A stretch of 64,000 nt of DNA. Source: Strigamia acuminata. Lineage: Eukaryota; Arthropoda; Chilopoda; Geophilomorpha; Linotaeniidae. Numbering within the stretch: the first letter of the stretch is position 1; each line of letters opens with the position of its first letter. The stretch lies in NCBI GenBank assembly GCA_949358305.1, contig OX442320.1, positions 374,501 through 438,500 on the forward strand, in the 5' to 3' direction. Made by a program: the position numbers and the translations under genes. Under the pieces are notes generated by a model. That model did no database searches. It was given only the letters and a program-made list of their open reading frames with translations, and was not told where the DNA came from. Below are positions 23,712 through 51,080 of the stretch, piece by piece.

Positions 23712-25412
23712 CATTGGACTTGTGGTGTTTGTGCTAAGTCAACCGTGATAAGATCAAAAGTCTATTCTCCCAAATCATTGCTTGGATGTTTCTAAAACTT
23801 ACATTGGAGCCTTCTACTAAGGTTTAAACACTATTTCTGAACATTCAGAGACATTGGTCTTGTGGTGTTTGTGCTAAGTCAACTGTGATGAGATCAAAAG
23901 TCTATTCTCCCAAATCATTGCTTGGATGTTTCTAAAACTTACATTGGAGCCTTCTACTAAGGTTTAAACACTATTTCTGAACATTCAGAGACATTGGTCT
24001 TGTGGTGTTTGTGCTAAGTCAACTATGATGAGATCAAAAGTCTATTCTCCCAAATGATTGCTTGGATGTTTCTAAAACTTACATTGGAGCCTTCTACTAA
24101 GGTTTAAACACTATTTCTGAACATTCAGAGACATTGGTCTTGTGGTGTTTGTGCTAAGTTAACTGTGATGAGATCAAAAGTCTATTCTCGCAAATCATTG
24201 CTTGGATGTTGCTAAAACTTCTCTTGAAGTCTTCTACTAAGGTTTAAACACTATTTCTGAACATTTAGAGACATTGGTCTTGTGGTGTTTGTGCTAAGTC
24301 AACTGCGATGTGAAATGAGCTCAAAATTTTTTTTTCAAAATTTATTGCTTGGATGTTGCTAAAACCTACATTGGAGCCTTCTACTAAGGTTTAAACACTA
24401 TTTCTGAACATTCAGAGACATTGGTCTTGTGGTGTTTGTGCTAAGTTAACTGTGATGAGATCAAAAGTCTATTCTCGCAAATCATTGCTTGGATGTTGCT
24501 AAAACTTCCCTTGAAGTCTTCTACTAAGGTTTAAACACTATTTCTGAACATTCAGAGACATTGGTCTTGTGGTGTTTGTGCTAAGTCAACTGCGATGTGA
24601 AATGAGCTCAAAATTTTTTTTTCAAAATTTATTGCTTGGATGTTGCTAAAACTTTCATTGGAGCCTTCTACTAAGGTTTAAACACTATTTCTGAACATTC
24701 AGAGACATTGGTCTTGTGGTGTTTGTGCTAAGTCAACTGTGATGAGATCAAAAGTCTATTCTCCCAAATCATTGCTTGGATGTTTCTAAAACTTACATTG
24801 GAGCCTTCTACTAAGGTTTAAACACTATTTCTGAACATTCAGAGACATTGGTCTTGTGGTGTTTGTGCTAAGTCAACTATGATGAGATCAAAAGTCTATT
24901 CTCCCAAATCATTGCTTGGATGTTTCTAAAACTTACATTGGAGCCTTCTACTAAGGTTTAAACACTATTTCTGAACATTCAGAGACATTGGTCTTGTGGT
25001 GTTTGTGCTAAGTCAACTATGATGAGATCAAAAGTCTATTCTCCCAAATCATTGCTTGGATGTTTCTAAAACTTACATTGGAGCCTTCTACTAAGGTTTA
25101 AACACTATTTCTGAACATTCAGAGACATTGGTCTTGTGGTGTTTGTGCTAAGTCAACTGTGATGAGATCAAAAGTCTATTCTCTCAAATCATTGCTTGGA
25201 TGTTTCTAAAACTTACATTGGAGCCTTCTACTAAGGTTTAAACACTATTTCTGAACATTCAGAGACATTGATCTTGTGGTCTTTGTGCTAAGTCAACTGC
25301 AATGTGAAATAAGCTCAAAATTTTTTTTTCAAAATTTATTGCTTGGATGTTGCTAAAACTTACATTGAAGGCTTCTACTAAGGTTTAAACACTATTTCTG
25401 AACATTCAGAGA
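23712..25412. repeat. Higher-order repeat unit, 12 monomers (deleted form)
   Basis: A 1701-bp unit directly following the 18-monomer unit. It has the same start and end variants but lacks six consecutive monomers (four of 140 bp and two of 147 bp, 854 bp). The join lies between two monomers of the TTGAAGTC type: the unit keeps the 'CTTCTCTTGAAG' and 'AACATTTAGAG' version where the reference first has the 'CTTCCCTTGAAG' version. This is the pattern expected from unequal exchange between similar monomers out of register. Confidence 0.8.
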
Positions 25413-27034
25413 CATTGGACTTGTGGTGTTTGTGCTAAGTCAACCGTGATAAGATCAAAAGTCTATTCTCCCAAATCATTGCTTGGATGTTTCTAAAACT
25501 TACATTGGAGCCTTCTACTAAGGTTTAAACACTATTTCTGAACATTCAGAGACATTGGTCTTGTGGTGTTTGTGCTAAGTCAACTGTGATGAGATCAAAA
25601 GTCTATTCTCCCAAATCATTGCTTGGATGTTTCTAAAACTTACATTGGAGCCTTCTACTAAGGTTTAAACACTATTTCTGAACATTCAGAGACATTGGTC
25701 TTGTGGTGTTTGTGCTAAGTCAACTATGATGAGATCAAAAGTCTATTCTCCCAAATGATTGCTTGGATGTTTCTAAAACTTACATTGGAGCCTTCTACTA
25801 AGGTTTAAACACTATTTCTGAACATTCAGAGACATTGGTCTTGTGGTGTTTGTGCTAAGTTAACTGTGATGAGATCAAAAGTCTATTCTCGCAAATCATT
25901 GCTTGGATGTTGCTAAAACTTCCCTTGAAGTCTTCTACTAAGGTTTAAACACTATTTCTGAACATTCAGAGACATTGGTCTTGTGGTGTTTGTGCTAAGT
26001 CAACTGCGATGTGAAATGAGCTCAAAATTTTTTTTTCAAAATTTATTGCTTGGATGTTGCTAAAACTTTCATTGGAGCCTTCTACTAAGGTTTAAACACT
26101 ATTTCTGAACATTCAGAGACATTGGTCTTGTGGTGTTTGTGCTAAGTCAACTGTGATGAGATCAAAAGTCTATTCTCCCAAATCATTGCTTGGATGTTTC
26201 TAAAACTTACATTGAAGCCTTCTACTAAGGTTTAAACACTATTTTTGAACATTCAGAGACATTGGTCTTGTGGTGTTTGTGCTAAGTCAACTATGATGAG
26301 ATCAAAAGTCTATTCTCCCAAATCATTGCTTGGATGTTTCTAAAACTTACATTGGAGCCTTCTACTAAGGTTTAAACACTATTTCTGAACATTCAGAGAC
26401 ATTGGTCTTGTGGTGTTTGTGCTAAGTCAACTATGATGAGATCAAAAGTCTATTCTCCCAAATCATTGCTTGGATGTTTCTAAAACTTACATTGGAGCCT
26501 TCTACTAAGGTTTAAACACTATTTCTGAACATTCAGAGACATTGGTCTTGTGGTGTTTGTGCTAAGTCAACTGCGATGTGAAATGAGCTCAAAATTTTTT
26601 TTTCAAAATTTATTGCTTGGATGTTGCTAAAACTTACATTGGAGCCTTCTACTAAGGTTTAAACACTATTTCTGAATATTCAGAGACATTGGTCTTGTGG
26701 TGTTTGTGCTAAGTCAACTGTGATGAGATCAAAAGTCTATTCTCCCAAATCATTGCTTGGATGTTTCTAAAACTTACATTGGAGCCTTCTACTAAGGTTT
26801 AAACACTATTTCTGAACATTCAGAGACATTGGTCTTGTGGTGTTTGTGCTAAGTCAACTATGATGAGATCAAAAGTCTATTCTCCCAAATGATTGCTTGG
26901 ATGTTTCTAAAACTTACATTGGAGCCTTCTACTAAGGTTTAAACACTATTTCTGAACATTCAGAGACATTGGTCTTGTGGTGTTTGTGCTAAGTCAACTA
27001 TGATGAGATCAAAAGTCTATTCTCCCAAATCATT

Positions 27035-27038
27035 GCTT
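27035..27038. repeat. Target-site duplication of element 1 (GCTT)
   Basis: GCTT precedes the 5' LTR here and recurs at 56624-56627 right after the 3' LTR, where the satellite continues as GCTTGGATGTTTC. Confidence 0.93.
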
Positions 27039-27777
27039 TGTTGCGAGCACGCGCAACATGGTTTTTTTTGCTATCGCAATAGCGGATTTGCTTGAATTGA
27101 TCAATTATTTAAGTTTGTGTTTAGTTAATAGTGCAGCTTAAGTTTTGGCTAAATGTTAAATGAATTTCGTGAAGTTTGTGACGTGGGAGTGGTAGTTGTA
27201 CATTAATTCCACTTAATTTTGTACTTCTTGACCGGCACTTTAGAGCTTTCTCTGCTAAGATTCACCTAAAGTGTCGTTTGCTGTTAGCTTTAAGTTTGTT
27301 TTTACTTTGAAATGCGTGTTTAACGGTTTACTGTATTTTCTGTATGCATTCTTGCTCATTTCTATGCTTTTAGTAGTTGTTATACTTTACAAGTTGGCAC
27401 TAGAGGGCTGAATTCTCTGTGCAATTGTTGTAAACCGTTGCTACGATCTGTGATCTAATTGTTGTGCGTTGCACAACAACACTTGCTTGCTAGGGTTAAG
27501 TTATGTAATTTTTTTCTCCCTTTTTCTTTCTGTGTACTTTTGATAGATATTAACTTTAGAATAAATTCAGTTTTCATGTGCTTTAGCACATCAGTCTTGG
27601 ATTCAATGTGTGCTCATTGCTGCGCCTGTTCAGGGCAGCAATTTCGTTTATTTTCCATAAGTTTCAAGAGTGAATTCAATCACGGCAATTCACTACAAGA
27701 TCAGGTGAGAGAAGTTATTCTTCATCTTTTTTTCCTCGTTTCTTGCAGACTGCCACGGTCCAGGGCTGCCGGAAACA
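27039..27777 (+). repeat. Element 1, 5' LTR
   Basis: A 739-bp LTR, same length as and apparently identical to 55885-56623. It starts with a hairpin-forming TGTTGCG-N6-CGCAACA and ends GGAAACA. It holds an AATAAA at 27560-27565 as possible poly(A) signal, the dyad TTGTGC-GT-GCACAA near 27461, and near its 3' end a splice-donor-like GGTGAGAG (27704-27711) followed by a pyrimidine tract and TTGCAG ending at 27748. No clear TATA box was seen. An open frame that enters from 27459 is not considered coding. Confidence 0.93.
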
Positions 27778-27780
27778 TTT

Positions 27781-27800
27781 TGGTACCGTTGACTCAGGAT
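27781..27800 (+). promoter_or_regulatory. Element 1 primer-binding site, tRNA-His-like
   Basis: TGGTACCGTTGACTCAGGAT begins three bases after the 5' LTR, the usual place for the minus-strand primer site. From memory, the metazoan tRNA-His acceptor stem begins GCCGTGA, so a perfect site would start TGGTGCCGTGA. This one has A for G at base 5 and an extra T. Element 2 has a closely similar site, which supports the assignment. The tRNA identity is tentative. Confidence 0.55.
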
Positions 27801-27836
27801 TTTCGAACGAATTTCCTTCCGCTCGTGGCTGCGAAA

Positions 27837-28376
27837 ATGGCGGACATCGACGCCATTTGTCCAAGCGAACTTGCCGAATGCAGAGCCAACTGCATTGGAG
27901 GTTTTTTGAGCTGTGTGACGTCAGCCACACAGAAGGCTATCACACAGGACGAGGATCGTCACACGGGAAGGCGAGTTCCGTGCTTGCGGTTCATCGGCGT
28001 CGTCAACACAGCACGTGGTTTGGCGTCGTTGATCAAGTCAGACGCCATTTGTCTGATCGTCGATAGCAACCACATCGGGATCGTCGGTCAAGAGAGTTTT
28101 ACAAAGATTTTCCGAGTTTTCGTGTGCCCAGCTAGTTGTACAGAACGAGGCTGTGTCCACACAGACGTGCGCCGTCTCACAAGCGACGCGGTCAAGATTC
28201 CAGTCAAGTTGTTTCGTCCTAAGCAGAGCGAGTCTTCTCAGGCAGAATGGACGATCCAGCAAAGAGATTCGTGCCGTCAGCGCACACAGAATGGTCACCG
28301 AGTTTGGAAGAGTCACTCTTCAAGCGTCAGTCGACCGTCAGTTAAACACAACGCAATGTACTGGAGTCGGCAATGA
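27837..28376 (+). CDS. Hypothetical short ORF in element 1
   Basis: The first ATG after the primer-binding site, in good context (AAAATGG), opens a 179-residue frame beginning MADIDAICPSELAECRANC. I recognise no domain. It is cysteine-containing and basic, with no zinc knuckle, protease or polymerase motif, and no hydrophobic segment long enough for a membrane span. The position is where gag would start, so it may be a decayed gag remnant or chance. The same strand is open upstream into the LTR, and other frames overlap it with similar lengths, which weakens the case. A 13-base repeat (GACGCCATTTGTC) occurs twice within it, near 27849 and 28041. Confidence 0.25.
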   Translation: MADIDAICPSELAECRANCIGGFLSCVTSATQKAITQDEDRHTGRRVPCLRFIGVVNTARGLASLIKSDAICLIVDSNHIGIVGQESFTKIFRVFVCPASCTERGCVHTDVRRLTSDAVKIPVKLFRPKQSESSQAEWTIQQRDSCRQRTQNGHRVWKSHSSSVSRPSVKHNAMYWSRQ

Positions 28377-29787
28377 AGATTTTGTTTTTTTTGTCGATTA
28401 TATTTTCTCGTTTTCATCAAATGTTAATTTTAAGGTTTTTGGGGGAAATTGTGGTTGTTTTGGGAGTTTTGGGGCGTTAGTTATGTTTCATGCTTCTGCA
28501 TACGTTGTTGTGCAAGTGTAGCTAGTTTCCACGCCTATTTGCGCCTTGTTTGGAGTCCCCTTAAACCCTAAACTTCTGTTTTTGTCCTCCTCGAATGCGT
28601 TTTCTAGTATTAATGTCATGAGTTTCTTGTTAAAGATACTAAAGAGTAGCTTATATGAATTTATTGGTTTTTTGTCGGGAATTAATTAGGGAGTTCCTGT
28701 CTTTAATTGTCTACAGTTAGACCTGCGGTTTTTAAGTAGCTTGCACACGTTTTATTGAGAATTTTCGACCCAATCCGTGCATACGGTAGTTAGTTGTATT
28801 TGAATTTTCTTTAATCTACTCCCTTTTAATTTGAAATCGCCAATTTATTACGCATTAAGCTCTTTGATTTTGAGTTCTTAGTTCTCCCGGGTTCTTTCCC
28901 CAGTTACCGGTAGGTTTTTGGATTAGGAATATTGCCTGATTCTGCATATTCTTGTGTGGAATGCTGGTGGTTCCTGGTCTTTACGTTTTTTGTATTCATT
29001 AATGCGTTTTGCTTGGGAATGTCGTTGCATTCGCTGCCCTTTGTAGCCTTGACCTGTTCTTTGGCGGTGCTAAGCCAATTAACTCTCGCCCTTAATTTAT
29101 CAGTGTCTCTAGATGTAGTAGGTCGGGGGTCAAGTTTCCTCGCAGCTGGGTGTGTGTGTGTTCGGGTGGAATGTAGACGATTCCTAATCTTTACGATTTA
29201 GCGTGTTCTTGTCTTGTCCAGTAAGATTTTCTTGGGGTCATTCGAGTTCCTCGTTGGTTCTGGTGTCGGACGCCTCTCCGGAACGAGAGAAGGCACACCC
29301 GTTTGTATTCGTGTATGGTAAAGTGTTTCCTGTTTTTAGAACGGGATTAGTTTCTTTGTTGCTCGTGTCTAGCAGAGAGTACGCTGGACCGCGAGGTCAG
29401 TCGGTTCTTACCTGTCCGTCAATCTCTGTTAGTTTAGGTTGTTACACAACTTGTTTGCAAGTGGGTTTGGATTTAGAAAGGCGTGTGACTTCTGTCGGTG
29501 CTGGAAGTTTAGAGCAGCCGATCCGCACCGCCCACTGGACAAGTCCAGTTTTTGTTGTTGACCGCTGCACCCAGTGTCTACCGCTGGTGATGTTACGTTC
29601 TGCATTTTCGCTAGCTTATTCGTTTAGGAAATAGCTTGCTTGCTATTTTATGGTTGTGGCTAGCTGGCGTGGCGGTAGGGTATAGGTACTTGTTTTGGAT
29701 GGTCGTTCTTGCTGTGCACAGCAAGGACTGCCATTCGATGTGTTTCAGAGGGCAGGTTTGCACTGCCATACTCTGTTAGATGTCGTG
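28377..29787 (+). other. Element 1 interior, left part, non-coding
   Basis: A G/T-rich stretch with no supported gene; several overlapping frames of 60-140 codons lack domains and start context. It contains a degenerate direct repeat (around 28955-29005 and around 29165-29215, sharing GTGGAATG, a TTCCT block and TCTTTACG) with a spacing near 210 bp. It ends at the TCCG target of element 2. Confidence 0.6.
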
Positions 29788-29791
29788 TCCG
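29788..29791. repeat. Target-site duplication of element 2 (TCCG)
   Basis: TCCG precedes the LTR here and recurs at 53515-53518 after the other LTR; element 1 sequence continues on both sides. Confidence 0.92.
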
Positions 29792-31149
29792 TGTTTCTGG
29801 CAAGGTCGCAGGCGACAACCAGGCCAGAAGGAGGGGCGGCAATACTTGACTGCTGCTTGGCTAAAATTGATACACAGAAGTTGGCCAAAGACTTGAAGAA
29901 ATGCAAACACTGGAATTGAACTTGCTGCTTCACATGTTGATCTGCCACTGGTGAGTTCAAGGAGGAGGAAGGAGGATTTTTCTACTCACTGCACATTGCT
30001 TTCTGGTTGTATAGAGAAATGAAACGTGGAGAGAAATAAAAAGAACCCATTTTATTCTCTAAATTCTTAACAAGACTACTACAATTGAATCACGAGGATA
30101 TTACAAAGAAGTCACACTTCAACAATAATAAGAAACAACAAGTGTAACTATCTCCACATTGTATAAGGACACTTGCACTTAAAGTTACAGAGGTCTCTAA
30201 GTGCTTGTAAAGAGAAATAAGTACTGCTGGCACAACAAAACTACCGTAGAAGTTAATAGTTGAAAACACATAAGCCTAACAGCAAGTATTTGACATTAAA
30301 TGCAAAAGTATACATTAACAACAGTCTCTAAACACAATGCTCATTGAGAACTAAATTATTCACTCTAAAACACACTGAACAACTCATAAAATAGAGAAAA
30401 GAATAAGTAAAGACATTTTAGACCAATGAGCTGGCAACTTTACAGTAAGTGCAGAAGTTAAGTTATAAATCAACACAGATAAATCTTAAACTTAACACTT
30501 TTACATTGCATAATAATTAAGTGATTAATTATTAATCAGAACCCACAAAAACTCTTTGGGATTAAACATTTTCTCCTCTCTTTACAGATACAAGTAGACC
30601 ACTCCCACAGTAATGGCCGACAATGTAAACAGAGATCACTTGCAGGAAGATAAAAAGGCTTGAAATTAGCTCACTAGACAGGCTACACACAATCTAAGTT
30701 AACAAAACGCTTAATTGGTTAGTAATATACAGAAAACAAACAGAAATTGATTGAAACAGCTTAAAACTGATAATAACATACATTTCTCATTCTAGTACCC
30801 TTTTGCTGTCTGAGAGCATCATTACACCTTGTCACTACATTGACAATAGTGGACTGGAAACAGGAAAACACTTGGAAACATCAAAACATGCATAACACAG
30901 GTAAACAAGATAGAAAATAAATTCTAAGTGGATAAATAACTAATGTAAAAACTCTTTTCTTCCCAGATTTATCCGGTCAGATCAACCAGTACTGAGAAAT
31001 TCACTCAAACTAACTCAAAGAAGACTTATATTCAGATAAGTGTCTAATTAAATTCCCAATCTAAGATAAATATTAAAACCCTTTTTTAATAATTCCAGAT
31101 GACTAATTTTTAAGACGTTTAGCAGCTTTCCTTTATGTTGCTAGCAACA
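29792..31149 (-). repeat. Element 2, 3' LTR
   Basis: 1358 bp, same length as and apparently identical to 52157-53514. On the minus strand it begins with the perfect 14-bp palindrome TGTTGCTAGCAACA and ends CCAGAAACA. A minus-strand AATAAA at 30051-30056 is a possible poly(A) signal. No TATA box is obvious. Open frames through it are short and overlap on both strands, so none is called. Confidence 0.93.
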
Positions 31150-31184
31150 TAGATTGCCGGCGAAAAGAAAGTGCGAACAACCCA
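31150..31184 (-). promoter_or_regulatory. Element 2 pre-LTR region (plus-strand priming site position)
   Basis: The 35 bases between the ORF stop and the 3' LTR. On the minus strand they end CTTTCTTTTCGCCGGCAATCTA-type sequence, a pyrimidine run followed by GCCGGCAA. The matching place in element 1 has CTTCTTTTTTGGCCGGCAA. The shared GCCGGCAA just before the LTR suggests a functional motif although it is not a classic purine tract. Confidence 0.45.
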
Positions 31185-34100
31185 TCATTTAGTTTGATTA
31201 CTTCTGGTCTTTGATGATAATATTTGGGAGACCTCTTTCACCTTTTTGTATTCCACTCTGGGTGGCATGATTCTTTGACGGATCAAATTTGGTATCCACG
31301 GAGGTATTCTTCGGTTGACAATCATACAACTAAGTCGAATAATTCCGTTGATGATTTTCCTTTTCGTCTCTAGGGACTTCATGGGCTTTGAGAAACATAC
31401 TCGACAGGTTGGTTTGTATTTGTCGATCCCTCCTATCATCTTGACTCGGGTTTCGTGCGAAATTCGTCTTGAAAATTCAGCTTTATCTCCGCAAAAATAA
31501 CATTTTGCTTGTAGTTTCACAACAGACTCGGCTAGTGGAACTAACTTGGATATCTGATCAAATGGCTTCCTCTTGAAGTCGACGTCTAATGCGGCGACTA
31601 TTACCTTTTTCTTTTGCTCAGCCATTTCATTTGAAAAAGTAAAAATGTCGGGAAAAAACTGTCCTTCATCAATTCCGATTGTCTTCATTAATTTCGTTTT
31701 TTCCACAGCATTGGTTAGGCTACTGGTCGCGATTGCTTCTCGTCGATGACCATCGTGGGTCACGACTTCGGCTTTACTGTAACGTTCGTCATTGGAGTGC
31801 TTAATGAGCAAGGACGACGTCTTCTCTTCCTTTTCTAAGATCTTCAATAACTTGGTTGTTTTCCCGGCATACATTGGACCAATGATGAGATGAATTCCCT
31901 TTTGATTGGTTGACAAATCAATTTTCTTTTTCCAGAAATTCAGAATCACGTTTCCACTCCATCTCACGATTGCACACAATTTGGGTAAACTGGGCACTTG
32001 GTTTGTAAGTAATTCGACGTTCTTTCTCCCTGACTCTAACTGATTTCGCCCTCGTAATTCCGGCTTCATGTCCGAGCTTGGAGTTCTGTTGACCAATCCT
32101 CCATCCTTGAACGACTTTTTCGTTTTTTGGAGGGTGGTGTCCAGTTCCTCTTTCTCCAGACCACTGGAGAGGCTCGCGGCAAAACAAGAAGGTGTGACGT
32201 CTGTCTGTTTATTCACACCGGGTTCGCCATTCATGTCGGACAGTGATTTCGGAATTAACTGGACTATTTTGTTTTCATCATTTTTAGGTTGATTTGAGAT
32301 CACTTCTTCTTTGGACTCGACCGCCATGCAAGAAATGTTGCACGCTGCCATGTTTTCTTCAAGCGGGTTGTTTGGTTTCAGTCGACCGTTTAGAATCCAC
32401 CCAAAAATTGTCTCCATTAATCCCAACTCGTCGTTGATTTTTCGGCTTCCACCTTGACAAATCTTCCACCATGCGTTGCTTCCTAATAAGACGTCAATGT
32501 CTTCCGATTCTGACGGATGTATCTCAGCCATCTCAAGTCCGAGTGATTGGACTTGCTTTATGGCTTCTGCTCCAATTATCCCTTTGACTTTCGGGAGTGT
32601 GTCGGTTTCTAATGCAAGGATTGATGTCTTTTTTGTTCCGTGTCTTGATTGTAGTTCGAATCTAAAGACATCATGTGTCGTCGGAACTGGCTTTTTGTTG
32701 AGCAGACACTGTGTCATCGTGTGTAGTGTCTCGATCTTTTGCATCCGGAATTTATTTACTAGTCTCTTCGTGACGTAGGAGCGATGGCTTCCTGGATCTA
32801 GTAATCCGCGGACGGGGTACATGTCTCCATTTTTCTTCACAAAAAGAGCAGTGAAGACCATCAGTTGAATCTCCACCGACTCGGTAAGCGATACATTAGT
32901 AGACACGTTTTCTTCTTTTGGTGTAATCGCTTTTTCTTTGTTGTTTTTGTTGCAGATCGATGTGTGATGTCTTCCACCACACAAGCGACAACAAAACTTC
33001 ACGGTACATTCTTTGGCTGTGTGGTTATATCTCAAGCAGTTGAAACAAAGTCGTTTCTTCTTCACTATTTCGATCCTCGCTGGTACATCGAGATCCGCAT
33101 CACAATTTGCGTGTGCGTGATCACCATCACAATAAGCGCAGGCGGGTTTGCGGTTTGGATTTGACTTGGAATTCATACTCAATTTTCCATTCTCGGAAGT
33201 CACGAATGAGGACATGGTTCCAGTTGGTCTTTCTCTTGTTTCCTTTGAAGTTTTCTCAAATTTTTCTGACTTCTTCAGATGAGCGCGCTTAAGGAGAACG
33301 CTTTCTTCCGACAATTCAGCCAGTTGTATCTCGGTTGCTACGAAGTCCAGAAAAACGTTAACATCATCAACTTTTCCTTGATGCTTTCGGTAAAAACGTT
33401 GGGAGATCTCCGGTGGAAATTTTCTAAGTAGTTCTGGAATAAGGTACGTTCCAGTAGTGTCAACTGACACAGACAGTTGCGCCATGGTCCGGACAGCAGA
33501 TGCCAATGACGTGAATAGAGCTTTGAGTGGCTCGATTGGGTAGAGATCGAAAACGGGTTTCGACTCCCTAATCATCTTTGAAATAGCATTTCTCTGCGTG
33601 TTTTCAGAACCGAATAGACTCTCCAATGTGTTTTTCGCTAATGGGTAGGCGTCATCAGTTATTGGGTACGACTTGATTGCGGATTCTGCAGCCCCAGTGC
33701 AGCATGACCTCAGATATATAAGCTTTTCCACGTTCGAAAGCTCCGTGTTCTGATCAACTGCTGATTCGAATAAATTCGCAAAACCTCTATATTCAGTTGC
33801 ATCGCCACTAAATTTGGCAATGTCGGTTTTCGGCAATCTCGTGTTTCTCCTAGATGAAGCGGACGTCTGGTTTAAACTGGAATTCTGTCCCGGATGGGAA
33901 CCAAATTGCCCTGCCATTTTTCCAGACACTTTTGCTCTTTGCTTCAATAAATTTACTCTGGTTCTAATGTCTTCAATTCGTTGAAGCCCCGCTAAATAGT
34001 CCTCTCTTTTTGACTCGTCTTTAAGAGCTTTCAATTCGTCGGCGAGATCACTCAATTGCTGGTCAACCGTTATTTGCATGGCTTCCAGCTCTCCTCCGTC

Positions 34101-34202
34101 TAGAATGTTGACTGAAGATCCCAGCAGATCCTCGGCTCCTTGAGCCTTTGCTTTCCAAATGACCTCCTTTTCCTCGAGATCAGCAGCGGATAATGTAGCC
34201 AT
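31185..34202 (-). CDS. Gag-protease-thymidine kinase fusion polyprotein (BEL/Pao)
   Basis: Intact 1005-codon ORF. The ATG at 34202 (MATLSAADLEEK) is the first in frame; the frame opens three codons earlier with GTG, from which residues are counted. Domains: coiled-coil-like 40-95; BEL/Pao Gag core (DUF1759-like) about 129-290; three zinc knuckles 358-420 (for example CFNCLRYNHTAKEC); retropepsin-like DUF1758-type region about 445-610 with LLDPGSHRSYV, LLGSNAWW and TIFGWILNG. The active-site triad reads DPG instead of DSG/DTG. A charged linker 615-770 follows, ending in NFWKKKIDL, which may be a relic of the segment before RT. Residues 770-945 are a TK1-type thymidine kinase. A basic tail runs to 1008. 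RT, RNase H and integrase are absent. Expected to form particles and phosphorylate thymidine; both roles are inferred from family membership. Confidence 0.95.
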   Translation of the reverse strand: MATLSAADLEEKEVIWKAKAQGAEDLLGSSVNILDGGELEAMQITVDQQLSDLADELKALKDESKREDYLAGLQRIEDIRTRVNLLKQRAKVSGKMAGQFGSHPGQNSSLNQTSASSRRNTRLPKTDIAKFSGDATEYRGFANLFESAVDQNTELSNVEKLIYLRSCCTGAAESAIKSYPITDDAYPLAKNTLESLFGSENTQRNAISKMIRESKPVFDLYPIEPLKALFTSLASAVRTMAQLSVSVDTTGTYLIPELLRKFPPEISQRFYRKHQGKVDDVNVFLDFVATEIQLAELSEESVLLKRAHLKKSEKFEKTSKETRERPTGTMSSFVTSENGKLSMNSKSNPNRKPACAYCDGDHAHANCDADLDVPARIEIVKKKRLCFNCLRYNHTAKECTVKFCCRLCGGRHHTSICNKNNKEKAITPKEENVSTNVSLTESVEIQLMVFTALFVKKNGDMYPVRGLLDPGSHRSYVTKRLVNKFRMQKIETLHTMTQCLLNKKPVPTTHDVFRFELQSRHGTKKTSILALETDTLPKVKGIIGAEAIKQVQSLGLEMAEIHPSESEDIDVLLGSNAWWKICQGGSRKINDELGLMETIFGWILNGRLKPNNPLEENMAACNISCMAVESKEEVISNQPKNDENKIVQLIPKSLSDMNGEPGVNKQTDVTPSCFAASLSSGLEKEELDTTLQKTKKSFKDGGLVNRTPSSDMKPELRGRNQLESGRKNVELLTNQVPSLPKLCAIVRWSGNVILNFWKKKIDLSTNQKGIHLIIGPMYAGKTTKLLKILEKEEKTSSLLIKHSNDERYSKAEVVTHDGHRREAIATSSLTNAVEKTKLMKTIGIDEGQFFPDIFTFSNEMAEQKKKVIVAALDVDFKRKPFDQISKLVPLAESVVKLQAKCYFCGDKAEFSRRISHETRVKMIGGIDKYKPTCRVCFSKPMKSLETKRKIINGIIRLSCMIVNRRIPPWIPNLIRQRIMPPRVEYKKVKEVSQILSSKTRSNQTK
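31377..31904 (-). other. Thymidine kinase (TK1 family) domain inside the Gag fusion
   Basis: About 175 residues, close to the catalytic core length of TK1-type enzymes, which transfer ATP phosphate to thymidine to give dTMP. Visible motifs in order: P-loop GPMYAGKTTK (778-787); DEGQFFPDI (848-856) with the expected catalytic glutamate E849; VIVAALDVDF and RKPF (870-884); PLAESVVKL; first zinc pair CYFC (904, 907); IGGIDKYKPTCRVC with the lasso tyrosine and second zinc pair (936, 939). All residues I expect for catalysis and zinc binding are present, with no stop or frameshift. The domain is intronless, consistent with capture from an mRNA. The close match in motif wording to animal TK1 suggests a cellular donor, but a DNA-virus donor cannot be excluded by eye. 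Confidence 0.93.
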
Positions 34203-34459
34203 AATCCTCACCGAGAAATGAAGAATTCAAAGATCAGTTCAGGATTCAAACTCAACTTAACTGACTAAATTGGTTAACAAGAAATTGTCTAATTCTTTTA
34301 CACTCTAGGATTTACTGAACACACAAAAGCAGGATGGATATCCACAAGCTGTTAACAGGATTGAAACACACGGGATGTTAACAGGATTGGCAAATTAACC
34401 CCCAAAATTCAATAATTAAAGGTAATTGACAATTCTCTTATTTTCACAATTGAGTTTCT
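34203..34459 (-). other. Element 2 leader, part next to the ORF, non-coding
   Basis: AT-rich 5' untranslated sequence just upstream of the Gag-TK start, with no gene. It holds a short direct repeat TGTTAACAGGATTG (around 34350 and 34377). Its other part lies at 51598-52156, on the far side of element 3. Confidence 0.7.
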
Positions 34460-34463
34460 GACT
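34460..34463. repeat. Target-site duplication of element 3 (GACT)
   Basis: GACT precedes the LTR here and recurs at 51594-51597 after the other LTR, within the leader of element 2. Confidence 0.92.
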
Positions 34464-34622
34464 TGTTACGTGGCCAAATGGCCAATAGTGACCACGTAAC
34501 TTATTTACTTATTACTACTAGACCTTTAGCTTCACTAATACTAGCTGAGCTAAAGAGTGACTTAATTAGCTAAGAGTGAAATGAAACACAGCCAGAGTTT
34601 TAAGATTGAAAACAATACAGTG

Positions 34623-34630
34623 TCTTTATT
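34623..34630 (-). terminator. Poly(A) signal AATAAAGA in element 3 3' LTR
   Basis: Minus-strand AATAAAGA about 195 bases downstream of the TATA box, in the order expected for U3-R-U5. The copy in the 5' LTR is at 51240-51247. Confidence 0.6.
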
Positions 34631-34822
34631 CTTTAAATCAAAACACTTAAATCATAAATACAAAATGTACGACTAAATCTAAACTAAACCTAATAAATAC
34701 TCTAAGATATGATTAACACTTTGATTCAGTTTGGAGGGAAACAATCACACCACGCCATTTGCTGGCTGGTGCTAACTGTTTAGAAGCCCGGGATGGACTC
34801 AGCTCTAAGAGCCAAAGTGGCT

Positions 34823-34830
34823 CTTTTATA
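34823..34830 (-). promoter_or_regulatory. TATA box in element 3 3' LTR
   Basis: Minus-strand TATAAAAG. It directly overlaps an 8-bp inverted repeat AAGAGCCA/TGGCTCTT (34807-34825), which would put a hairpin or a dyad binding site between the TATA box and the likely transcription start. Confidence 0.65.
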
Positions 34831-34976
34831 CTAGAGTCACCCCCTGAGTTAATCCAGATTGACCAGCCCGTGATGTCACCATCACGTACGCTGGCTAGTG
34901 ATAGATTTTGACAACTTCTTTAATTCTATCGCTGGTTTGAGCTGGTCGGCAGACGACGCAACTCAACCGCGTGACA

Positions 34977-34987
34977 GCCCCCTCTTT
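34977..34987 (-). promoter_or_regulatory. Element 3 polypurine tract
   Basis: AAAGAGGGGGC on the minus strand, immediately before the 3' LTR: the classic plus-strand priming site, and confirmation of orientation. Confidence 0.85.
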
Positions 34988-35634
34988 AAATTTTTTGGTC
35001 TCCAAAAACCACAGTACTTTAGAATTTAAGCCAATTATTTTATATGCTAATCATACCTTAAAAATAATCAAATATATGAGTCCCCCCCCCAGTGTTAATC
35101 ATATCTTTTACAAAGTAAAACAAAATTCCAAAGTTCACTAAAAGAAATTACAATGAAATTCAACACTTTACTATTCAAAATAACACTTTTTGGATTTTTC
35201 TACATTTTTATATTACTTTTTTTCTTCGAGTTTTCTAACATTTTCTATAAAACTATGAAATCTATATCTTCATTAAAATACACACAAAAAACAAAGTATT
35301 TAACTCAAAAGTTCATAAAAGAGGAGCCTTTAACTTCTCTTTTTCTTCTTCGAATGGTTCCAAAGTCTTCTGATGTAATTCGTAAAGAATCCGGTGGCGT
35401 AGATGAATCGGATGCGCATGGCGCATGTAGTCTCGGTCCACCAGATAGCTTCTTGAAAATTATCCGTGTTAATTTCGTTTACAAACTTCCCAAATTTCCG
35501 CTCTATTAATCTTCAATTTCAATTGTTTAATAATACGTACTGTCACACACGCGCTTTCTAAATATCACGTTGTTAAGTTCAATTGAAAATTTTCTCCGGT
35601 CACAACAATATGCTTGTGTTCCCTTTGAAAACGT
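34988..35634 (-). other. Element 3 3' untranslated region
   Basis: AT-rich, non-coding, between the pol stop and the polypurine tract. It contains a C10 run on the plus strand near 35082-35091. A plus-strand frame of 118 codons at 35153-35509 is AT-driven and has no domain, so it is not called. Confidence 0.6.
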
Positions 35635-38600
35635 TCAGTAGAATGTAGTGTAATCGCGTCGTGCCTGTTTGCGTAGGCGGCGTGACCGGAAACTGCCAAT
35701 TTCAGGTGGTCGCGCATGCGCGTCGTTGTCGACCGCACTTGCGACGCCTGGTGACGGTTTCGGAAGTTGATTTTCCTCATTTTCCGCCGGAAGTTCATCC
35801 TCGAATAAGCCTCGCAACGATATTTGATCGTCATCGTCAATGAAACGTTCCGTAGCTGCAGAAATAGGTTTGTTTGACGAATTTACGTTGTTTTTCGCGA
35901 TAATTTCCTTTCCGCTGTCTATTTCCTTCAAATCCTCAGCAAATGTAACCTTTTTAGCTGTTAAAGGCCTCATGATATCTTCTGAAAGTTCTTCTCTCAT
36001 TTTGTACGGTTTCAGTCGCTCTATGTTCACAATGTCCATCTTTTTGCCTGATGAACTTCGAATTTCGTAGTCATTCGGCGCTGTTCGTCGTACGATCTCA
36101 TATGGCCCAGAGAATTGTGGCAAGAGCTTTTCGCTTAAACCAACCTTTCTATTTGGTGTTTTCAAATAAACTAGCTCCCCTGGATCGAATTCCACGTGTA
36201 CTCTGTCCAAATCAAACCTTTTCTTGCTTTTCACACCTTGTTCTTGTATTCTTTCATTGGCAATTCTCCTTGCCTCCCTGATAAATCTGGAAGTACGCAA
36301 AGTGAATTCCTTACGAGGAAGATTTAAGTTGACATCCACGTTGAGATCTGCTTCATAACCTCGTAATAAATAATACGGAGTGTAACCTGTTGTTTCATGG
36401 ACTCCAGTGTTGTAAGAGAATAGAAGAAATGGTAAAAATGCGTCCCAATCAGTATGATCTTTATTTACATAACTCTGCAACATCTTAGCTATTGTTGCAT
36501 TAAATCTTTCCGTAAGACCATTTGTTCTTGGATGGTATCCGGAAGTGGATTTGTGAAGGGACTTAAACAATGCAGATATCTCCTTAATCATTTCATTTCT
36601 GTATTCTGTTCCCTTATCACTCAGAATCTCTCGTGGGCTTCCTTCTTTCAGCATGACTTCATAAACAAGGGCATTCGCTGCTTCAATAGCTGTGCAAGCT
36701 GGTGCTGCTCTAGCTATTGCAGTGCGTGATAAATAATCCGTAATAATGAAAACGTACTTGTTTCCTGTGTCAGATGTTGGAAAACTGCCTAACGTGTCTA
36801 TGGCTACTCGTTCGAATGGTCGAGACACTGTCGACCACGGCTGCATCAATCCTTTTGGCGGTGTTGTCATGGTTTTTGCACTTGCACACTTCGGACATGA
36901 GAGTACGTAATTCCTTACGTCCCTATAAATCCTTGGCCAGAAGAAACGTGTTCTAATTTTCTTCCAAGTTCTACTCAGGCCTAAATGAGCGCCTGTAAGA
37001 CCATCATGCATTTCTACTAAAACATCTTTTCTCAAATGCTGTGGAATATACAGTAATTCTTCCGTGTTCAAGGAATTAAATTTCTTCTTAAACAAAATAT
37101 CGCCTTGAAGTACGTACTGCTGTAGCGGACGTCTTCTTTTGCGCGGAAGTTGCTCTATTGTCTGCAGTGATGTGATGAGTTCCATAATCTTCTGATCTTT
37201 ACGCTGCTCTGCAGGTAAATCGAGATTTTCGAGCAATAATGAAGGAATAATTACCTCTTCTTCACTAATGTCCTCAGGAATCCTACTTAACGCATCGGCA
37301 TCTGTATGTTTCTTGCCTGACTTATGCTGTACTTCATAATCATAGTCAACCAACTGCAGACTCCATCGTGCTAACCTACCATTTGGATTTTTGACGCTTT
37401 TCAGCCATTGAAGTGCTGAATGGTCCGTGATGATGGTAAACTTCTTTCCATACAAATAAGGGCGAAATTTCTGTATGCCAAACAATATGGCCAGACATTC
37501 CCTTTCTGTCGCGTTATAGTTCTGTTCGGCATTGCTCAATAACCTACTAGCATAACAAATCACATGCTCTTGGTTGTTAAGCTTTTGCTTCAAAATGGCT
37601 CCCAAACCGTAAGCGCTTGCATCCGTTGATATGATGAAAGGCTGTGCGAAATTAGGATGAGCCAAAACTGGCACTGTTACCAAAGCTGTTCTTAGTTGTT
37701 TAAATGCTTCTTCATGAGGCGGTCCCCAGTCGAATTTCTCGTCTTTCTTCGTAAGGTTGACCAAGGGTTTGGAAATATCAGCAAATCCTAAAATGAATTT
37801 TCTATAATATGAGCACAAACCCAAAAATCCCCTTAACTGCTTCACATTTAATGGAATTGGAAACTTTGCTACAGACTCGAGATTTCGTGGATCTGGTGAA
37901 ATGCCTTCTGAATCAATCACGTGTCCGAGATATCGGATTGTATCCGTCCCGAAAGTGCATTTACTTAGCTTTACCTTTAAATTCGCAATTCGCAGTTTTT
38001 CAAAGACTGAGTCCAGATCTTGTAAATGTTGTTCAAATGTTTTAGAAAAAATTATAAGGTCGTCAAGATAGGCTATACAGACCTTTCCAAGGAGGTTGCC
38101 CAATACTTTATTCATCAATTTTTGAAACGCTGCTGGGCTGTTACATAACCCCATTCCAAGGACATTAAATTCATAGTGTCCGGTTGAAGTGGTGAACGCT
38201 GTCTTCTCTCGATCTTGTTCATTTATTTCAACTTGATGGTATCCTTGGATTAAATCCATCATCGAGAAAAACTGGGCCCCTGCTAGTTGATCTAACGTGT
38301 CATCTATTCTTGGCAGTGGGTACACCATTTTCTTTGTAATTGCGTTCAACCTTCTCCAATCAACACAAAACCTCCATTTACCGTCTCTTTTCTTGATGAG
38401 CAAAACTGGCGCGCTCCAGGGACTTTCTGATTCCCTTATGACTCCTTGTTCTAACAATTTTCTGGTTTCCTCAGCTTCTACTTCTTTTTCTGCAATTGAT
38501 CGTCTGTACGGCTGCAAGTGAATAGGTTCATGATCACCTGTATCAATTTTATGACTAAAGTTGGTTACTCTTCCTAAATCTTTATCTGTCATGGCAAATC

Positions 38601-39564
38601 TGTCCTGATTTTTCTGAAGTAACTGCTTCATTTGTTGCTGTTGGTTCTTGGTCATCTTACCTTCGGCTATTGCGGAGTCAAAATCAAAGCAATTTGCTTG
38701 TTTTTCATTCGACAACTCAACAACCTTAGAACTCGGGGAGTTAGAGTCAAAACAATTTGCTTGTTTTTCATCTATCAGCCCAATATCAATAATATAATGT
38801 GCCTTACCAATCGCAGACTTCTCTTGCAGAAAAATGGACTTAGATGTTGGATTCGCCACTCGTATTACGCCTTTGCCGTTCTCAAACTTTGTTAACGTCT
38901 TACAACACATAATACCAAACCTATCAATTACATTTCCTAAAGGTTCCAAAAACATTTCTTTCGTTAACGCTGTGCTTAAATTAACTGGAACTACACATTC
39001 ATGCATTGGTGGAATTGCTATGCCTTTTGTCACTCTTGCTACGTAATTCTGGTCCACATACGTCTTATTCATCGGGAAAACCGCTTCTAATCCACTTTTT
39101 CGGCCCACAAAGATTTTTTGTAAATCATAATCAACAACACACCTCGCACAAGTCATAAATGGATCTCCTAATAAAAGTTGGTAATTGAAACTTCTAACTA
39201 TCAATACTTCTACTGAATACTGCAATTGTCCTATTTGAATGTTCAAATTTGTTTTACCCACTGGAGTTATTAAATCAGTTCCTATTCCTCGTAATCTAAC
39301 GTTGGGTGTAGGTTGATAATCCAACTGTAATATTTCTGCTAACTCTTCACTCAAAATGTTCTTCTTAGCTCCAGTGTCCATGACTGCCTTTATTTCCAAA
39401 TTTTTTACAATTACCGGGATTTCCAACAATGATTCCGAAATTTTTGCGTCAATTATTATAATGTTATCCTTTTTCCATCTTTTATTCTTTTTCTTCTTAC
39501 TTCTACTCGGATGGTAACAATTTCTCTGTGGCCGACCTCCTAGTTTTCCGTCTGTTGTTGGGTG
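35635..39564 (-). CDS. Ty3/Gypsy Pol polyprotein (protease-RT-RNase H-integrase)
   Basis: Open from just after a TAA at 39567 to 35635, about 1309 codons, no ATG at its start. It overlaps gag in the -1 frame, so it is probably made by -1 frameshifting. Counting from the Leu codon at 39429: protease with MDTGAKKN (about 17-24) and LLLGDPF; RT with YPLPRIDD (about 370), MDLIQGYHQ and YLDD (454-457); RNase H with TDASAYGLGAIL (602-613), ATERECLAI and TDHSAL; integrase zinc finger H808, H815, C845, C848; catalytic D878, D938, E974 (D-X59-D-X35-E); GPY module PQFSGPYEIV (1104-1113); a charged C-terminal tail of about 120 residues. No internal stop, so the enzymes look functional. EKQANCFD occurs twice 21 residues apart (221 and 242), a 63-bp tandem duplication upstream of RT. 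Confidence 0.96.
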   Translation of the reverse strand, partial: HPTTDGKLGGRPQRNCYHPSRSKKKKNKRWKKDNIIIIDAKISESLLEIPVIVKNLEIKAVMDTGAKKNILSEELAEILQLDYQPTPNVRLRGIGTDLITPVGKTNLNIQIGQLQYSVEVLIVRSFNYQLLLGDPFMTCARCVVDYDLQKIFVGRKSGLEAVFPMNKTYVDQNYVARVTKGIAIPPMHECVVPVNLSTALTKEMFLEPLGNVIDRFGIMCCKTLTKFENGKGVIRVANPTSKSIFLQEKSAIGKAHYIIDIGLIDEKQANCFDSNSPSSKVVELSNEKQANCFDFDSAIAEGKMTKNQQQQMKQLLQKNQDRFAMTDKDLGRVTNFSHKIDTGDHEPIHLQPYRRSIAEKEVEAEETRKLLEQGVIRESESPWSAPVLLIKKRDGKWRFCVDWRRLNAITKKMVYPLPRIDDTLDQLAGAQFFSMMDLIQGYHQVEINEQDREKTAFTTSTGHYEFNVLGMGLCNSPAAFQKLMNKVLGNLLGKVCIAYLDDLIIFSKTFEQHLQDLDSVFEKLRIANLKVKLSKCTFGTDTIRYLGHVIDSEGISPDPRNLESVAKFPIPLNVKQLRGFLGLCSYYRKFILGFADISKPLVNLTKKDEKFDWGPPHEEAFKQLRTALVTVPVLAHPNFAQPFIISTDASAYGLGAILKQKLNNQEHVICYASRLLSNAEQNYNATERECLAILFGIQKFRPYLYGKKFTIITDHSALQWLKSVKNPNGRLARWSLQLVDYDYEVQHKSGKKHTDADALSRIPEDISEEEVIIPSLLLENLDLPAEQRKDQKIMELITSLQTIEQLPRKRRRPLQQYVLQGDILFKKKFNSLNTEELLYIPQHLRKDVLVEMHDGLTGAHLGLSRTWKKIRTRFFWPRIYRDVRNYVLSCPKCASAKTMTTPPKGLMQPWSTVSRPFERVAIDTLGSFPTSDTGNKYVFIITDYLSRTAIARAAPACTAIEAANALVYEVMLKEGSPREILSDKGTEYRNEMIKEISALFKSLHKSTSGYHPRTNGLTERFNATIAKMLQSYVNKDHTDWDAFLPFLLFSYNTGVHETTGYTPYYLLRGYEADLNVDVNLNLPRKEFTLRTSRFIREARRIANERIQEQGVKSKKRFDLDRVHVEFDPGELVYLKTPNRKVGLSEKLLPQFSGPYEIVRRTAPNDYEIRSSSGKKMDIVNIERLKPYKMREELSEDIMRPLTAKKVTFAEDLKEIDSGKEIIAKNNVNSSNKPISAATERFIDDDDQISLRGLFEDELPAENEENQLPKPSPGVASAVDNDAHARPPEIGSFRSRRLRKQARRDYTTFY

Positions 39565-40264
39565 TTAACTGTAATACTAGGACCTTCTCTTCTACGTCTT
39601 CTTGGTCTTCCAGCAGTACCACCTCTATCCTGTTGGTACCTTGGTGGATTATAAAACTCGCAAGTAAAGTGATGATAGCATCCACAAGATCGAGTATTAT
39701 TATTATTACTATTATTGTTATTGTTAGTATTGTAATTTTGACTACCACCTCTATTAGTACTACCTCTTTGAAAATTCTTATACTGAAAATTCTGACCTCC
39801 TCGCTTCATTGGTGTATACCACTGGCTTCCTATCAAGATGGGTTCTTCTGACGTCGGTTCCACCGTCTCAAGAGCTAATAACCGTTGCCTTAACATTGCA
39901 TTTTCAGCTAAAAGCTCGGCGTGGGTTAATGAGGTTTCCACAGTTCCACTCAGTTTACCTGATGTCGCTGGAGTTACCTTTTCATCCACCACCTTTTTGA
40001 AAAGTGAGAGCAGTAAATCCGCTGGATCCTTAACCTTGTGGGTCTCGTACAACTTCACCCTCTGTTCCATCTCTGCCAGTGTGGATGGGAATACTGTAAT
40101 TATCATCTTCTTCATATCGGGTTTCATACCTTGATAAACATAATTAATCTTTTGATGTTCAGTGAGCTCCGGCCTTACAAAAGCACACTCAGCCAAAACT
40201 TTTTTCATATAGGCATCTGCTGTTCCTTCTGTATGCGACATAAAATGAAGAGTATTTAAAACAT
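39540..40264 (-). pseudogene. gag of element 3, 3' part (cut off by element 4)
   Basis: Continuation of the gag frame, about 241 codons, ending with TAG at 39540. It carries the later part of a retrotransposon capsid (YVYQGMKPDMKKMIITVFPS region), a leucine-rich helical segment near LTHAELLAENAMLRQRLL, an asparagine-rich run coded by AAT/AAC repeats (about 39690-39735), a cysteine-histidine motif CGCYHHFTC that may be a degenerate zinc knuckle, and an arginine-rich stretch. The frame runs backward into the element 4 LTR, so no native start remains on this side. Removing element 4 and one ACAT copy would put it in frame with 49685-49968, so insertion alone explains the break. Confidence 0.88.
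40261..40264. repeat. Target-site duplication of element 4 (ACAT)
   Basis: ACAT lies here before the LTR and at 49685-49688 after the other LTR. Frame arithmetic of the split gag (9424 bp removed) agrees with a 4-bp duplication. Confidence 0.9.
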
Positions 40265-42168
40265 TGTGACGGTGACGACCACAACTCCCATTTAACAATG
40301 GTACCGGGAAGAGATCGCAATAAATAAACAGTGAATACAATACGAGATAAATACAAGACAGTTTATTGTTGGTAAACAATAATATCAAGGCTAAATTATA
40401 CATAGGACTAATGCCGACATTTGGCAAGTTAAATCAGCTATTAAACTATACAAAGAATTGGCCAACTGGCCCTAGAATAATATCACTACGGGTCTGGAAT
40501 ATGGGAGCGGTTTCCCCATCGCTCGACCTGATTATAGATGTCATCTTAAGCCGGATGGCTGTGTCCTGGAGTCCGATACGGCTTCGCTGGTTTCCTTGGT
40601 TCGCTGTGTAAACTATCGCACGTCGATAAATCGAATGATCTGAGCATTGCGGTTGACTTTGTCTGCACCGCCACAACTTTGGGAGGATATTGGTGTAAGT
40701 AAATGTATTCATTTACTTATCAATATTCCACTTATGAATTATATTTAATTCATATCGTTGTGAATTCTTATTTAGATATTTTCGGGAATAAGTTGTCGTC
40801 AACTTATCGGTTATATTGAGTTCAATATGAGATTAAGTCTTCTGACTTGATTTTGGTCCAACTGGTTGTCGAGTTTAAGTTTTGCTGTTATAAATAAAAT
40901 GAAGATTAAGCTTCCCGTCGCAACACACAATTGCCATCGATTAGAATATACGCCTTGCCATGCAGAACGGTATCAAGCGTCCCCGGCGTCGCAGCACGGT
41001 CGTCCATCGAGTGGTTGACGGTACCACGTACACAGGGGTCGATAGCTCGCGGCTCCGCACAGCAGTTTTATCTCTCGCGGTACTAATAATAGACCGACTG
41101 CTTTGGCATCGAATACCATGAGAATCAGCTTGCCAAACACTTGGTGCTACTCGTGGTTACTGTAAAACAGACTGCTTTGGCACCATCAGGTGAAGGAACC
41201 GATTCTCAACAATACCGATGCTACTCGTGGTAACGGAATACGTTCATACCGAAAAAGACAACTTGGTCCTGTCCGGAGGATACTGAATTGCACAACGGCG
41301 GGTTCTCCTTCGGCGTCGCAACCGTAGACTGTAACATTTATGCAACATAATAATCCCAGCACTTCGACTTCAATTGCCGGCGGTGGCATGATTCTGTAGA
41401 ATCATGCAACGGTTCTTTGCGAATAAATCAACAAAGAACCAAAAGGTTTTTTTACGTGAACAACGAATCATATTTCTTAAGTAACAATACCAAACAGAAA
41501 ATAATCAAACAGAGCTGCAGAATGGCCGGTTGTTTGGGTTTATATAACCTGACTGGATTAAGGATTAATCCAGTTATCCAATTGGAACATGGGTTCCACG
41601 AATCCCTCCAATCCCGTATCACCGGAAGTGGATACGGAGGAACAATGTGCTAATTCTCACCACAACCGGAACTGGATACCCAGGACCGGAAATGGATCCA
41701 CCAATCAGATCTATTGGTTGATCGATTGATCACCAAATGTCCTGTCCCGCAGAAAATGGAAGTTACATTGTATTTAACATCACAAGACATTAATATATCT
41801 TTATATTAATGTTCACAAAGCTTCGTTTCATTCTAGTAAATATAGTTTTATATTTATTTACATGTTTTATATTCATATCTTGAATTTGCCGCTAAATCGT
41901 AATCGCGCCATCTTGTGGCAACATTGCGCATTGACAAATGCGGTTTTAGCAGACGACTCTTCGTGATTCGGCCGGAATCCTTTGATATCAAGTAGGAATG
42001 AGTGTTTATTCTTAATAAACGAACATCTTTGTATTTGAAACATCATAAATAACTTTATTCTAGACATTTATCAGTTTTACACAGAATATTGTAAAAATAC
42101 CATCATATTGGCGCAACAGCGCTTTCTTGATAGAAAATAGGCATTTATAGCCATTGTAAACCGTCATA
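40265..42168 (-). repeat. Element 4, 3' LTR
   Basis: 1904 bp, same length as 47781-49684, and the short frames inside both copies translate identically. The ends form an inverted repeat (TGTGACGG on + at the left, CCGTCATA at the right) with one mismatch. A minus-strand TATATAAA at 41539-41546 may be the promoter, with copy at 49055-49062; a minus-strand AATAAA lies at 40362-40367. Short frames on both strands have no domain and are not called. Confidence 0.93.
41539..41546 (-). promoter_or_regulatory. Possible TATA box in element 4 LTR
   Basis: TATATAAA on the minus strand in a GC-balanced part of the LTR. The other LTR copy has it at 49055-49062. The start site is not otherwise defined. 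Confidence 0.4.
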
Positions 42169-47778: not shown

Positions 47779-47780
47779 CG

Positions 47781-51077: not shown

Positions 51078-51080
51078 CTT

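What the first reader, a model, noticed from the sequence alone, without database searches (positions are those of the whole stretch)
31185..34202. Thymidine kinase captured by a BEL/Pao retrotransposon as a Gag-protease fusion
A single intact ORF joins a BEL/Pao Gag with zinc knuckles and a retropepsin-like region to a complete TK1-type thymidine kinase with all expected motifs. Nucleotide-metabolism genes in retroelements are rare; dUTPase in some retroviruses is the known parallel, and thymidine kinases are otherwise known from cells and large DNA viruses. Fused to Gag, the kinase could be packed into particles and raise local dTTP during reverse transcription in non-dividing cells. That role is inference. 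The ORF has no stop or frameshift and the LTRs look identical, so the fusion was probably mobile recently.
Basis: partly seen in the sequence, partly recalled or inferred. Interest (0 to 1): 0.96.

Follow-up and report, generated by a model that had tools for sequence, protein, structure and literature searches.

The report
Retrotransposon capsid fused to thymidine kinase
In this animal genome a family of jumping genes carries, in place of its DNA-copying enzymes, what looks like a working enzyme for making a DNA building block, fused to its shell protein; the joined gene exists in many copies and bears the mark of selection.

Summary
Confirmed, with one correction. ORF 34202-31185 (-) joins a BEL/Pao Gag (DUF1759, three Cys/His knuckles) and a retropepsin-like region to a TK1-type thymidine kinase. 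84 of 150 scored TK matches in this 237-Mb, probably arthropod, genome lie in uninterrupted 995-1013-aa frames, in two families 53% identical. All four copies fetched with both LTRs have 100% identical LTRs and 4-bp target duplications. The kinase is under purifying selection (dN/dS 0.11 in the most informative pair; Gag-protease 0.08, linker 0.47), and the fused kinases tested form one clade (100/99). Correction: the element has no pol. It is LTR, leader, Gag-PR-TK, LTR: non-autonomous. Of six other BEL Gags compared, the nearest belongs to families with many intact autonomous frames in the same chromosome regions and a similar primer-binding region. Most likely the element supplies Gag with kinase attached to shared particles and borrows Pol, as proposed for wheat Quinta and Cereba. 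Enzyme activity, packaging and benefit to reverse transcription are inference. Two protein searches found no other Gag-TK protein and six paper searches listed none described. Species unidentified; other TK-bearing repeats here remain unexplained.

The parts
31185..34202 (-). Gag-protease-thymidine kinase ORF (1005 aa from the ATG, stop included)
33387..33812 (-). Gag domain DUF1759 (PF03564)
   Evidence: E 2.1e-17; coordinates
32952..33140 (-). three zinc-knuckle-like Cys/His motifs (CX2CX3-4HX4C)
   Evidence: read from the translation; aligned with other BEL Gags
32352..32894 (-). retropepsin-like region, D-P-G motif within 32787-32804
   Evidence: alignment A1, model and fold search
31392..31895 (-). 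TK1-type thymidine kinase domain: Walker A 31857-31880, DEGQFF within 31653-31673, lasso cysteines within 31395-31502
   Evidence: E 6.2e-54
29792..31149 (-). 3' LTR of the Gag-TK element (1358 bp)
   Evidence: 100% identical to 52157-53514
52157..53514 (-). 5' LTR of the Gag-TK element
52133..52156 (-). primer-binding region next to the 5' LTR
31150..31184 (-). 3' junction tract with CTTTTCGCCGGCAAT before the 3' LTR; its CCGGCAAT core also stands in an unrelated BEL family
29788..29791 (.). target duplication TCCG of the Gag-TK element (other copy at 53515-53518)
34464..51593 (-). Ty3-like element nested in the leader of this copy (duplication GACT); not part of the Gag-TK element
27039..56623 (.). 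element A, an LTR element (LTR 739 bp, 100% identical, duplication GCTT) into which the Gag-TK element inserted
1..27038 (.). 140-bp satellite array (continues at 56624-64000) that holds the nest of elements

Best explanation
The feature is a young, multicopy, non-autonomous BEL/Pao-type retrotransposon whose only long protein is Gag-protease-TK1. The kinase stands where Pol should be; the fusion arose before two element families split and has been kept under selection. Proposed working (inferred): the element supplies Gag carrying an active thymidine kinase to virus-like particles; reverse transcriptase and integrase come in trans from autonomous BEL families with related Gag that lie in the same chromosome regions. 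The kinase converts thymidine to dTMP at the particle and cell kinases take it to dTTP, easing cDNA synthesis when host thymidylate is low. Shown: structure, copies, recency, selection, single clade of the fused kinases, kinship to the helper Gag, co-localisation by coordinates. Inferred: enzyme activity, co-packaging, helper, benefit.
For: 84 of 150 scored TK matches (205 candidates) lie in uninterrupted 995-1013-aa frames. Families F1 and F2 are 53% identical overall, Gag-PR 57% and TK 57%. L021 vs L002 (both F1, dS about 1): dN/dS TK 0.112, Gag-PR 0.080, linker 0.466; nonsynonymous changes 42 of 105 in TK against 78% expected, p 9e-17. Fused kinases one clade, 100/99. LTRs 100% identical in 4 of 4 copies fetched with both LTRs, duplications TCCG, CAAC, ACAG, TTTG. 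Of six other BEL Gags compared, the one at L028 is nearest (34.6-36.7% against 22.3-28.6%), clade with the Gag-TK Gags 100/100. 44 of the 77 scored relatives of that Gag lie in frames of 1751 or 1783 aa without a stop in the match, and one encodes the Pao domain PF05380. Primer-binding regions of helper and Gag-TK families share a GTGACC..AGGATT-like stretch that one unrelated BEL family lacks. Walker A, DEGQFF and the four lasso cysteines are kept; the TK model (pLDDT 89.4) finds TK1 structures.
Against: No expression, particle or enzyme data. Helper and Gag-TK families share no LTR sequence. The 3' junction core CCGGCAAT is also in the one unrelated BEL family checked, so it is no specific link. 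Satellite sequence was found in none of the four helper loci tested. The Gag comparison was with six elements, not genome-wide. The fused kinases are not fully canonical: of 48 columns invariant in 25 other TK1 proteins, F2 keeps 39 and F1 37, with changes in the helix after Walker A among others. F2 has Ser at human Thr163, a change reported to shift the human enzyme's specificity (PDB title); 4 of the 25 other TKs have Ser there too. The protease motif is D-P-G, as in 3 of 5 autonomous elements compared. Grouping of the two fusion families against the helper is weak in the Gag tree (66/62). In F2 the tail shows little constraint (window-L022 dN/dS 0.98, few changes).
Confidence: 0.57

Rival explanations
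1. The kinase fold is kept as a structural or oligomerisation module of Gag (TK1 enzymes are tetramers, recalled), not for catalysis.
For: A lone kinase is an odd metabolic addition. Nine (F2) and eleven (F1) of 48 otherwise invariant columns are changed.
Against: Walker A, DEGQFF and the four lasso cysteines are kept in both families. Selection on TK is nearly as strong as on Gag.
Confidence: 0.16
2. The kinase acts on the host cell as a whole, raising its thymidylate pool, rather than inside particles.
For: The same genome carries many other TK genes in repeats, and the one pair of these tested at a distance (L015-L014) is also under purifying selection. That suggests repeats here profit from TK whether or not it is tied to Gag.
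Against: Fusion to Gag is kept in both families over a divergence at which synonymous sites are saturated. Free TK would serve the cell as well.
Confidence: 0.2
3. A passenger host gene was transduced by chance and is neutral.
For: Gene transduction by LTR elements is known (passages of PMC7264820).
Against: dN/dS 0.11 between diverged F1 copies; 84 uninterrupted frames; two diverged families keep the fusion.
Confidence: 0.02
4. Assembly chimera between a Gag and a cellular TK.
For: Satellite-rich regions are hard to assemble; raw reads were not available.
Against: The fusion stands on many contigs and, in fetched copies, in two sequence families with different LTRs and different target duplications.
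Confidence: 0.01

Closest known systems
RLG_Quinta with RLG_Cereba (wheat centromeric gypsy pair), PMC11302176, passages seen
   Same: Non-autonomous LTR element that encodes Gag plus an extra domain but no RT or integrase, derived from an autonomous element of the same regions and proposed to supply Gag to shared particles.
   Different: BEL/Pao-type of an animal, not gypsy of a plant. The extra domain is a recognisable enzyme. Helper and dependent LTRs are not alike here. Whether these satellites are centromeres is unknown.
Betaretroviral nucleocapsid-dUTPase fusion, PMC4531489, passages seen
   Same: A thymidylate-pathway enzyme fused to a Gag part of a retroelement; viral dUTPases are linked there to growth in non-dividing cells.
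   Different: dUTPase, not a salvage kinase; retroviruses with Pol.
dUTPase, esterase and exonuclease domains in bdelloid rotifer LTR elements, PMC5408684, passages seen
   Same: Enzyme domains gained and kept by LTR elements.
   Different: Added to gag-pol elements; the word kinase does not occur in the paper's text.
AlkB-like demethylase in orchid gypsy elements, PMC9289625, passages seen
   Same: Captured enzyme kept through subfamily radiation.
   Different: Separate ORF in an element with Gag and Pol; other chemistry.
BEL/Pao elements of animals, PMC3118150, abstract and outline seen
   Same: Gag type and host range.
   Different: Pol absent and TK present here; the words thymidine, kinase and non-autonomous do not occur in its text.
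TK1 of animals and large DNA viruses
   Same: Domain sequence, main motifs and predicted fold.
   Different: Fused to Gag, in a mobile element; some otherwise invariant residues changed.

Membership tests
LTR retrotransposon | paired LTRs, TG..CA, short target duplication | tested here: met
BEL/Pao | Gag of the DUF1759 type, grouping with BEL/Pao Gags | tested here: met
BEL/Pao | Pao-type RT, RNase H and integrase | tested here: not met
   no pol frame between the LTRs of the window copy, L020, L021, L022; so a non-autonomous derivative
TK1-type thymidine kinase | Walker A, DEGQFF, lasso with four cysteines | tested here: met
TK1-type thymidine kinase | phosphorylates thymidine | not testable with these tools
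   needs an assay
Gag-encoding non-autonomous partner (Quinta-like) | Gag kept, RT and integrase lost | tested here: met
Gag-encoding non-autonomous partner (Quinta-like) | primer-binding site and 3' tract shared with the autonomous partner | tested here: inconclusive
   primer-binding regions alike with small gaps, unlike one unrelated BEL family; 3' core shared also with that family
Gag-encoding non-autonomous partner (Quinta-like) | LTR sequence shared with the autonomous partner | tested here: not met
   no LTR match between F1 or F2 and the two helper families
Gag-encoding non-autonomous partner (Quinta-like) | copies targeted to functional centromeres | not testable with these tools
   8 of 14 fetched Gag-TK loci contain the 140-bp satellite; no centromere mark known here

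The most novel reading that the evidence does not exclude
Two retrotransposon lineages trade parts: a pol-less element pays for borrowed Pol by supplying shell protein that carries its own thymidine-salvage enzyme, so that shared particles make a DNA building block while copying themselves into satellite DNA. It would be, as far as I know, the first nucleoside kinase built into a retroelement's capsid protein.
Probability: 0.38. Interest if true: 0.93.

Novelty: new variant of a known kind. Interest (0 to 1): 0.82.

Why it matters
dNTP supply can limit reverse transcription in resting cells, and some retroviruses carry a dUTPase; I found no retroelement described with a thymidine kinase. A Gag-fused kinase kept by selection in two families makes a direct test possible: does a retroelement particle bring its own nucleotide salvage? 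It may also be an animal case of a Gag-supplying, Pol-borrowing element in satellite DNA, which has been proposed for plant centromeres.

Tried and rejected
Chimera, chance join and neutral passenger were rejected (see rivals). Gag-TK-Pol element: the two longest TK frames (1118 and 1999 aa, C130) run through N, not fusions. Autonomous element with the same LTR: the 40 scored of 122 LTR candidates suggested none, judged from spacing only. A PBS-like site at C1:38.8 Mb has no match to the five proteins compared in 6 kb. Other TK-bearing repeats: block ends differ between copies and I could not define elements. Gag-TK proteins elsewhere: whole-protein search gave 5 hits, none listed with a TK domain (only the 8000 candidates sharing most words were scored); the TK-region search among long proteins gave 3 hits of 471 candidates, with no Gag domain matched. 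The TK tree used 11 rows of this genome and 31 of 33 chosen from the 120 listed homologues; P0089 and P0016, without the core motif, were dropped. A host TK1 gene with introns was not seen, but only 150 of 205 candidates were scored, so absence is not shown. Organism: 54 Chitin_bind_4 matches point to an arthropod; a search for insect receptors did not complete. Literature: searches, judged from listings; two listed papers checked by passages: PMC7593179 (thymidine kinase only as a horizontal-transfer candidate in the passage shown) and PMC5601938 (says the Teratorn element lacks thymidine kinase).

Full report
Observation. The window is C9:374501-438500 of a 237-Mb genome that is probably an arthropod's (54 Chitin_bind_4 matches). 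A 140-bp satellite fills 1-27038 and 56624-64000.

The protein. Gag (DUF1759), three Cys/His knuckles, a retropepsin-like region that ends in the FGW-L-G motif of intact BEL elements, a linker of about 160 residues, TK1 and a tail of about 70. In the alignment with autonomous elements of the same genome, similarity is lost after the protease; there the fusion carries TK. The TK model has pLDDT 89.4 and its best matches are TK1 enzymes of Leishmania, human and vaccinia. The protease model is moderate (62.8); its best matches are retroviral and Ddi1 proteases, none under E 0.001.

Copies. Of 150 scored TK matches (205 candidates), 84 lie in uninterrupted frames of 995, 1002, 1009 or 1013 aa (32, 5, 13 and 34). 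Eight more look fusion-like but are shorter or hold a stop; two of these (open frames 346 and 633 aa) I did not fetch. The other 58 are TK frames of different repeats: 40 of 190 aa, 13 of a second kind, 5 of a third. These are my counts from the table, by open-frame length and, for a part, by fetched sequence. Fusion copies crowd at C1:64-66.5 Mb, C5:12-15.5, C8:6.8-7.5, C9:0.3-0.7, C11:0.1-0.6 and C13:7.9-10.3 Mb, with single ones on C4 and C6 and others on small contigs. Family F1 (L021, L020, divergent L002) and F2 (window, L022) differ in LTRs. The four copies fetched with both LTRs (window, L020, L021, L022) all have 100% identical LTRs and 4-bp duplications (the L020 duplication is read after shifting its LTR end to ..ACA). 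Two other fetched copies, L027 (638-aa frame) and L028 (one stop), showed no such LTR pair in their 9.9 kb. Satellite sequence was found in 8 of the 42 loci scanned: 8 of the 14 that hold Gag-TK sequence, none of the loci of the other TK repeats, none of the four helper loci.

Selection. Nei-Gojobori counts: L021 against L002, both F1, TK dN/dS 0.112 with dS 1.02, Gag-PR 0.080, linker 0.466, tail 0.322. Between F1 and F2 synonymous sites are saturated while TK and Gag-PR are each 57% identical. Within families: window-L022 TK 0.224 (tail 0.98), L021-L020 TK 0.165. Nonsynonymous changes are too few in TK in all four fused pairs tested (p 9e-17 to 0.017; simple binomial on rounded counts). L002 is a single locus with a shorter open frame (814 aa), so the strongest pair rests on one partly shortened copy.

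Origin of the kinase. In a tree of 42 TK proteins the 11 TKs of this genome form one side of a branch (89/90) and the 5 fused ones a clade (100/99); F1 and F2 split inside it. One capture, probably from the lineage's own TK genes, is the simplest reading; the donor is not identified. Of 48 columns invariant in the 25 TKs from elsewhere, F2 keeps 39 and F1 37, the other TKs of this genome 42 or 43; catalytic and lasso motifs are kept.

Helper. Of six other BEL Gags compared, the nearest is at L028:288-1985 (34.6-36.7% over about 547 positions; the others 22.3-28.6%). L028's own frame is only 566 aa, but of its 77 scored relatives (1652 candidates) 44 lie in frames of 1751 (33) or 1783 (11) aa without a stop in the match, nearly all in the chromosome regions where Gag-TK copies lie. 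A piece of one encodes the Pao domain PF05380 (E 3.6e-41). Gags of helper and Gag-TK elements are a clade (100/100), apart from five other BEL Gags of the genome and four from elsewhere. Primer-binding regions: F1 TTTTGGTACCGTGACCCAAGGATTT, helper 1751 TTTTGGTAGCCGTGACCAGGATT, helper 1783 TTATGGTGCACGTGACCAGGATT; an unrelated BEL family reads TTGGTGCCGAAACCCGGGA. The 3' junction reads CGCCGGCAAT in F2 and both helpers and CGGCGGCAAT in F1, but CCGGCAAT also stands at that place in the unrelated family (one control only). LTRs of helper and Gag-TK families are not alike. This fits a Gag-supplying, Pol-borrowing pair as proposed for wheat Quinta and Cereba (passages of PMC11302176) but does not prove it.

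Function. Enzyme activity, packaging and benefit are inference. Arguments: main catalytic and zinc residues kept in both families, strong constraint, constant fusion to Gag. The nearest precedent is the betaretroviral nucleocapsid-dUTPase (passages of PMC4531489). F2 has Ser at the human Thr163 position, as do 4 of the 25 other TKs. That residue number and its meaning come from the PDB title; roles of other motifs are recalled.

Novelty. No protein with both domains was found in two searches of a 5.8-billion-protein collection (word-based and capped), and no paper listed in searches appears from its listing to describe one. The kind of element, a Gag-only dependent LTR element, is known; the cargo appears new.

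Noticed in passing
G000 genome, e.g. L015:4542-5111(-), L014:4525-5172(-), L012:4501-5163(+): Three further kinds of TK frame sit in other repeats: 190 aa (40 of 150 rows), a second kind mostly of 216-269 aa (13) and one of 221-239 aa (5). Between the first two (L015-L014) TK shows purifying selection. What carries them is unexplained; block ends differ between copies.
   Followed up: partly
L024:1084-3849: A copia-type reverse transcriptase frame (922 aa) contains a methyl-CpG-binding domain (PF01429, E 6.5e-11) between the SH3-like and RT domains.
   Followed up: no
window 27039-56623: Element A shows no frame with a Pfam match (its longest, 305 aa, gave none) and has a primer region like that of the Gag-TK element. 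Its exact 22-base site occurs at 27 places, mostly in the same contig regions; an A-like copy lies at C1:2.77 Mb (L029).
   Followed up: partly
G000 genome: BEL/Pao elements are abundant and look young: 1068 candidates for the Pao domain, 150 scored, many in frames of over 1700 aa without stops.
   Followed up: no
window 40265-49688: A 1.9-kb direct repeat pair (99.9%) inside element C, with no matching target duplication seen.
   Followed up: no
L009, L010, L011 (C130, C17): 2.5-4.4 kb of N next to TK repeats of the second kind.
   Followed up: no
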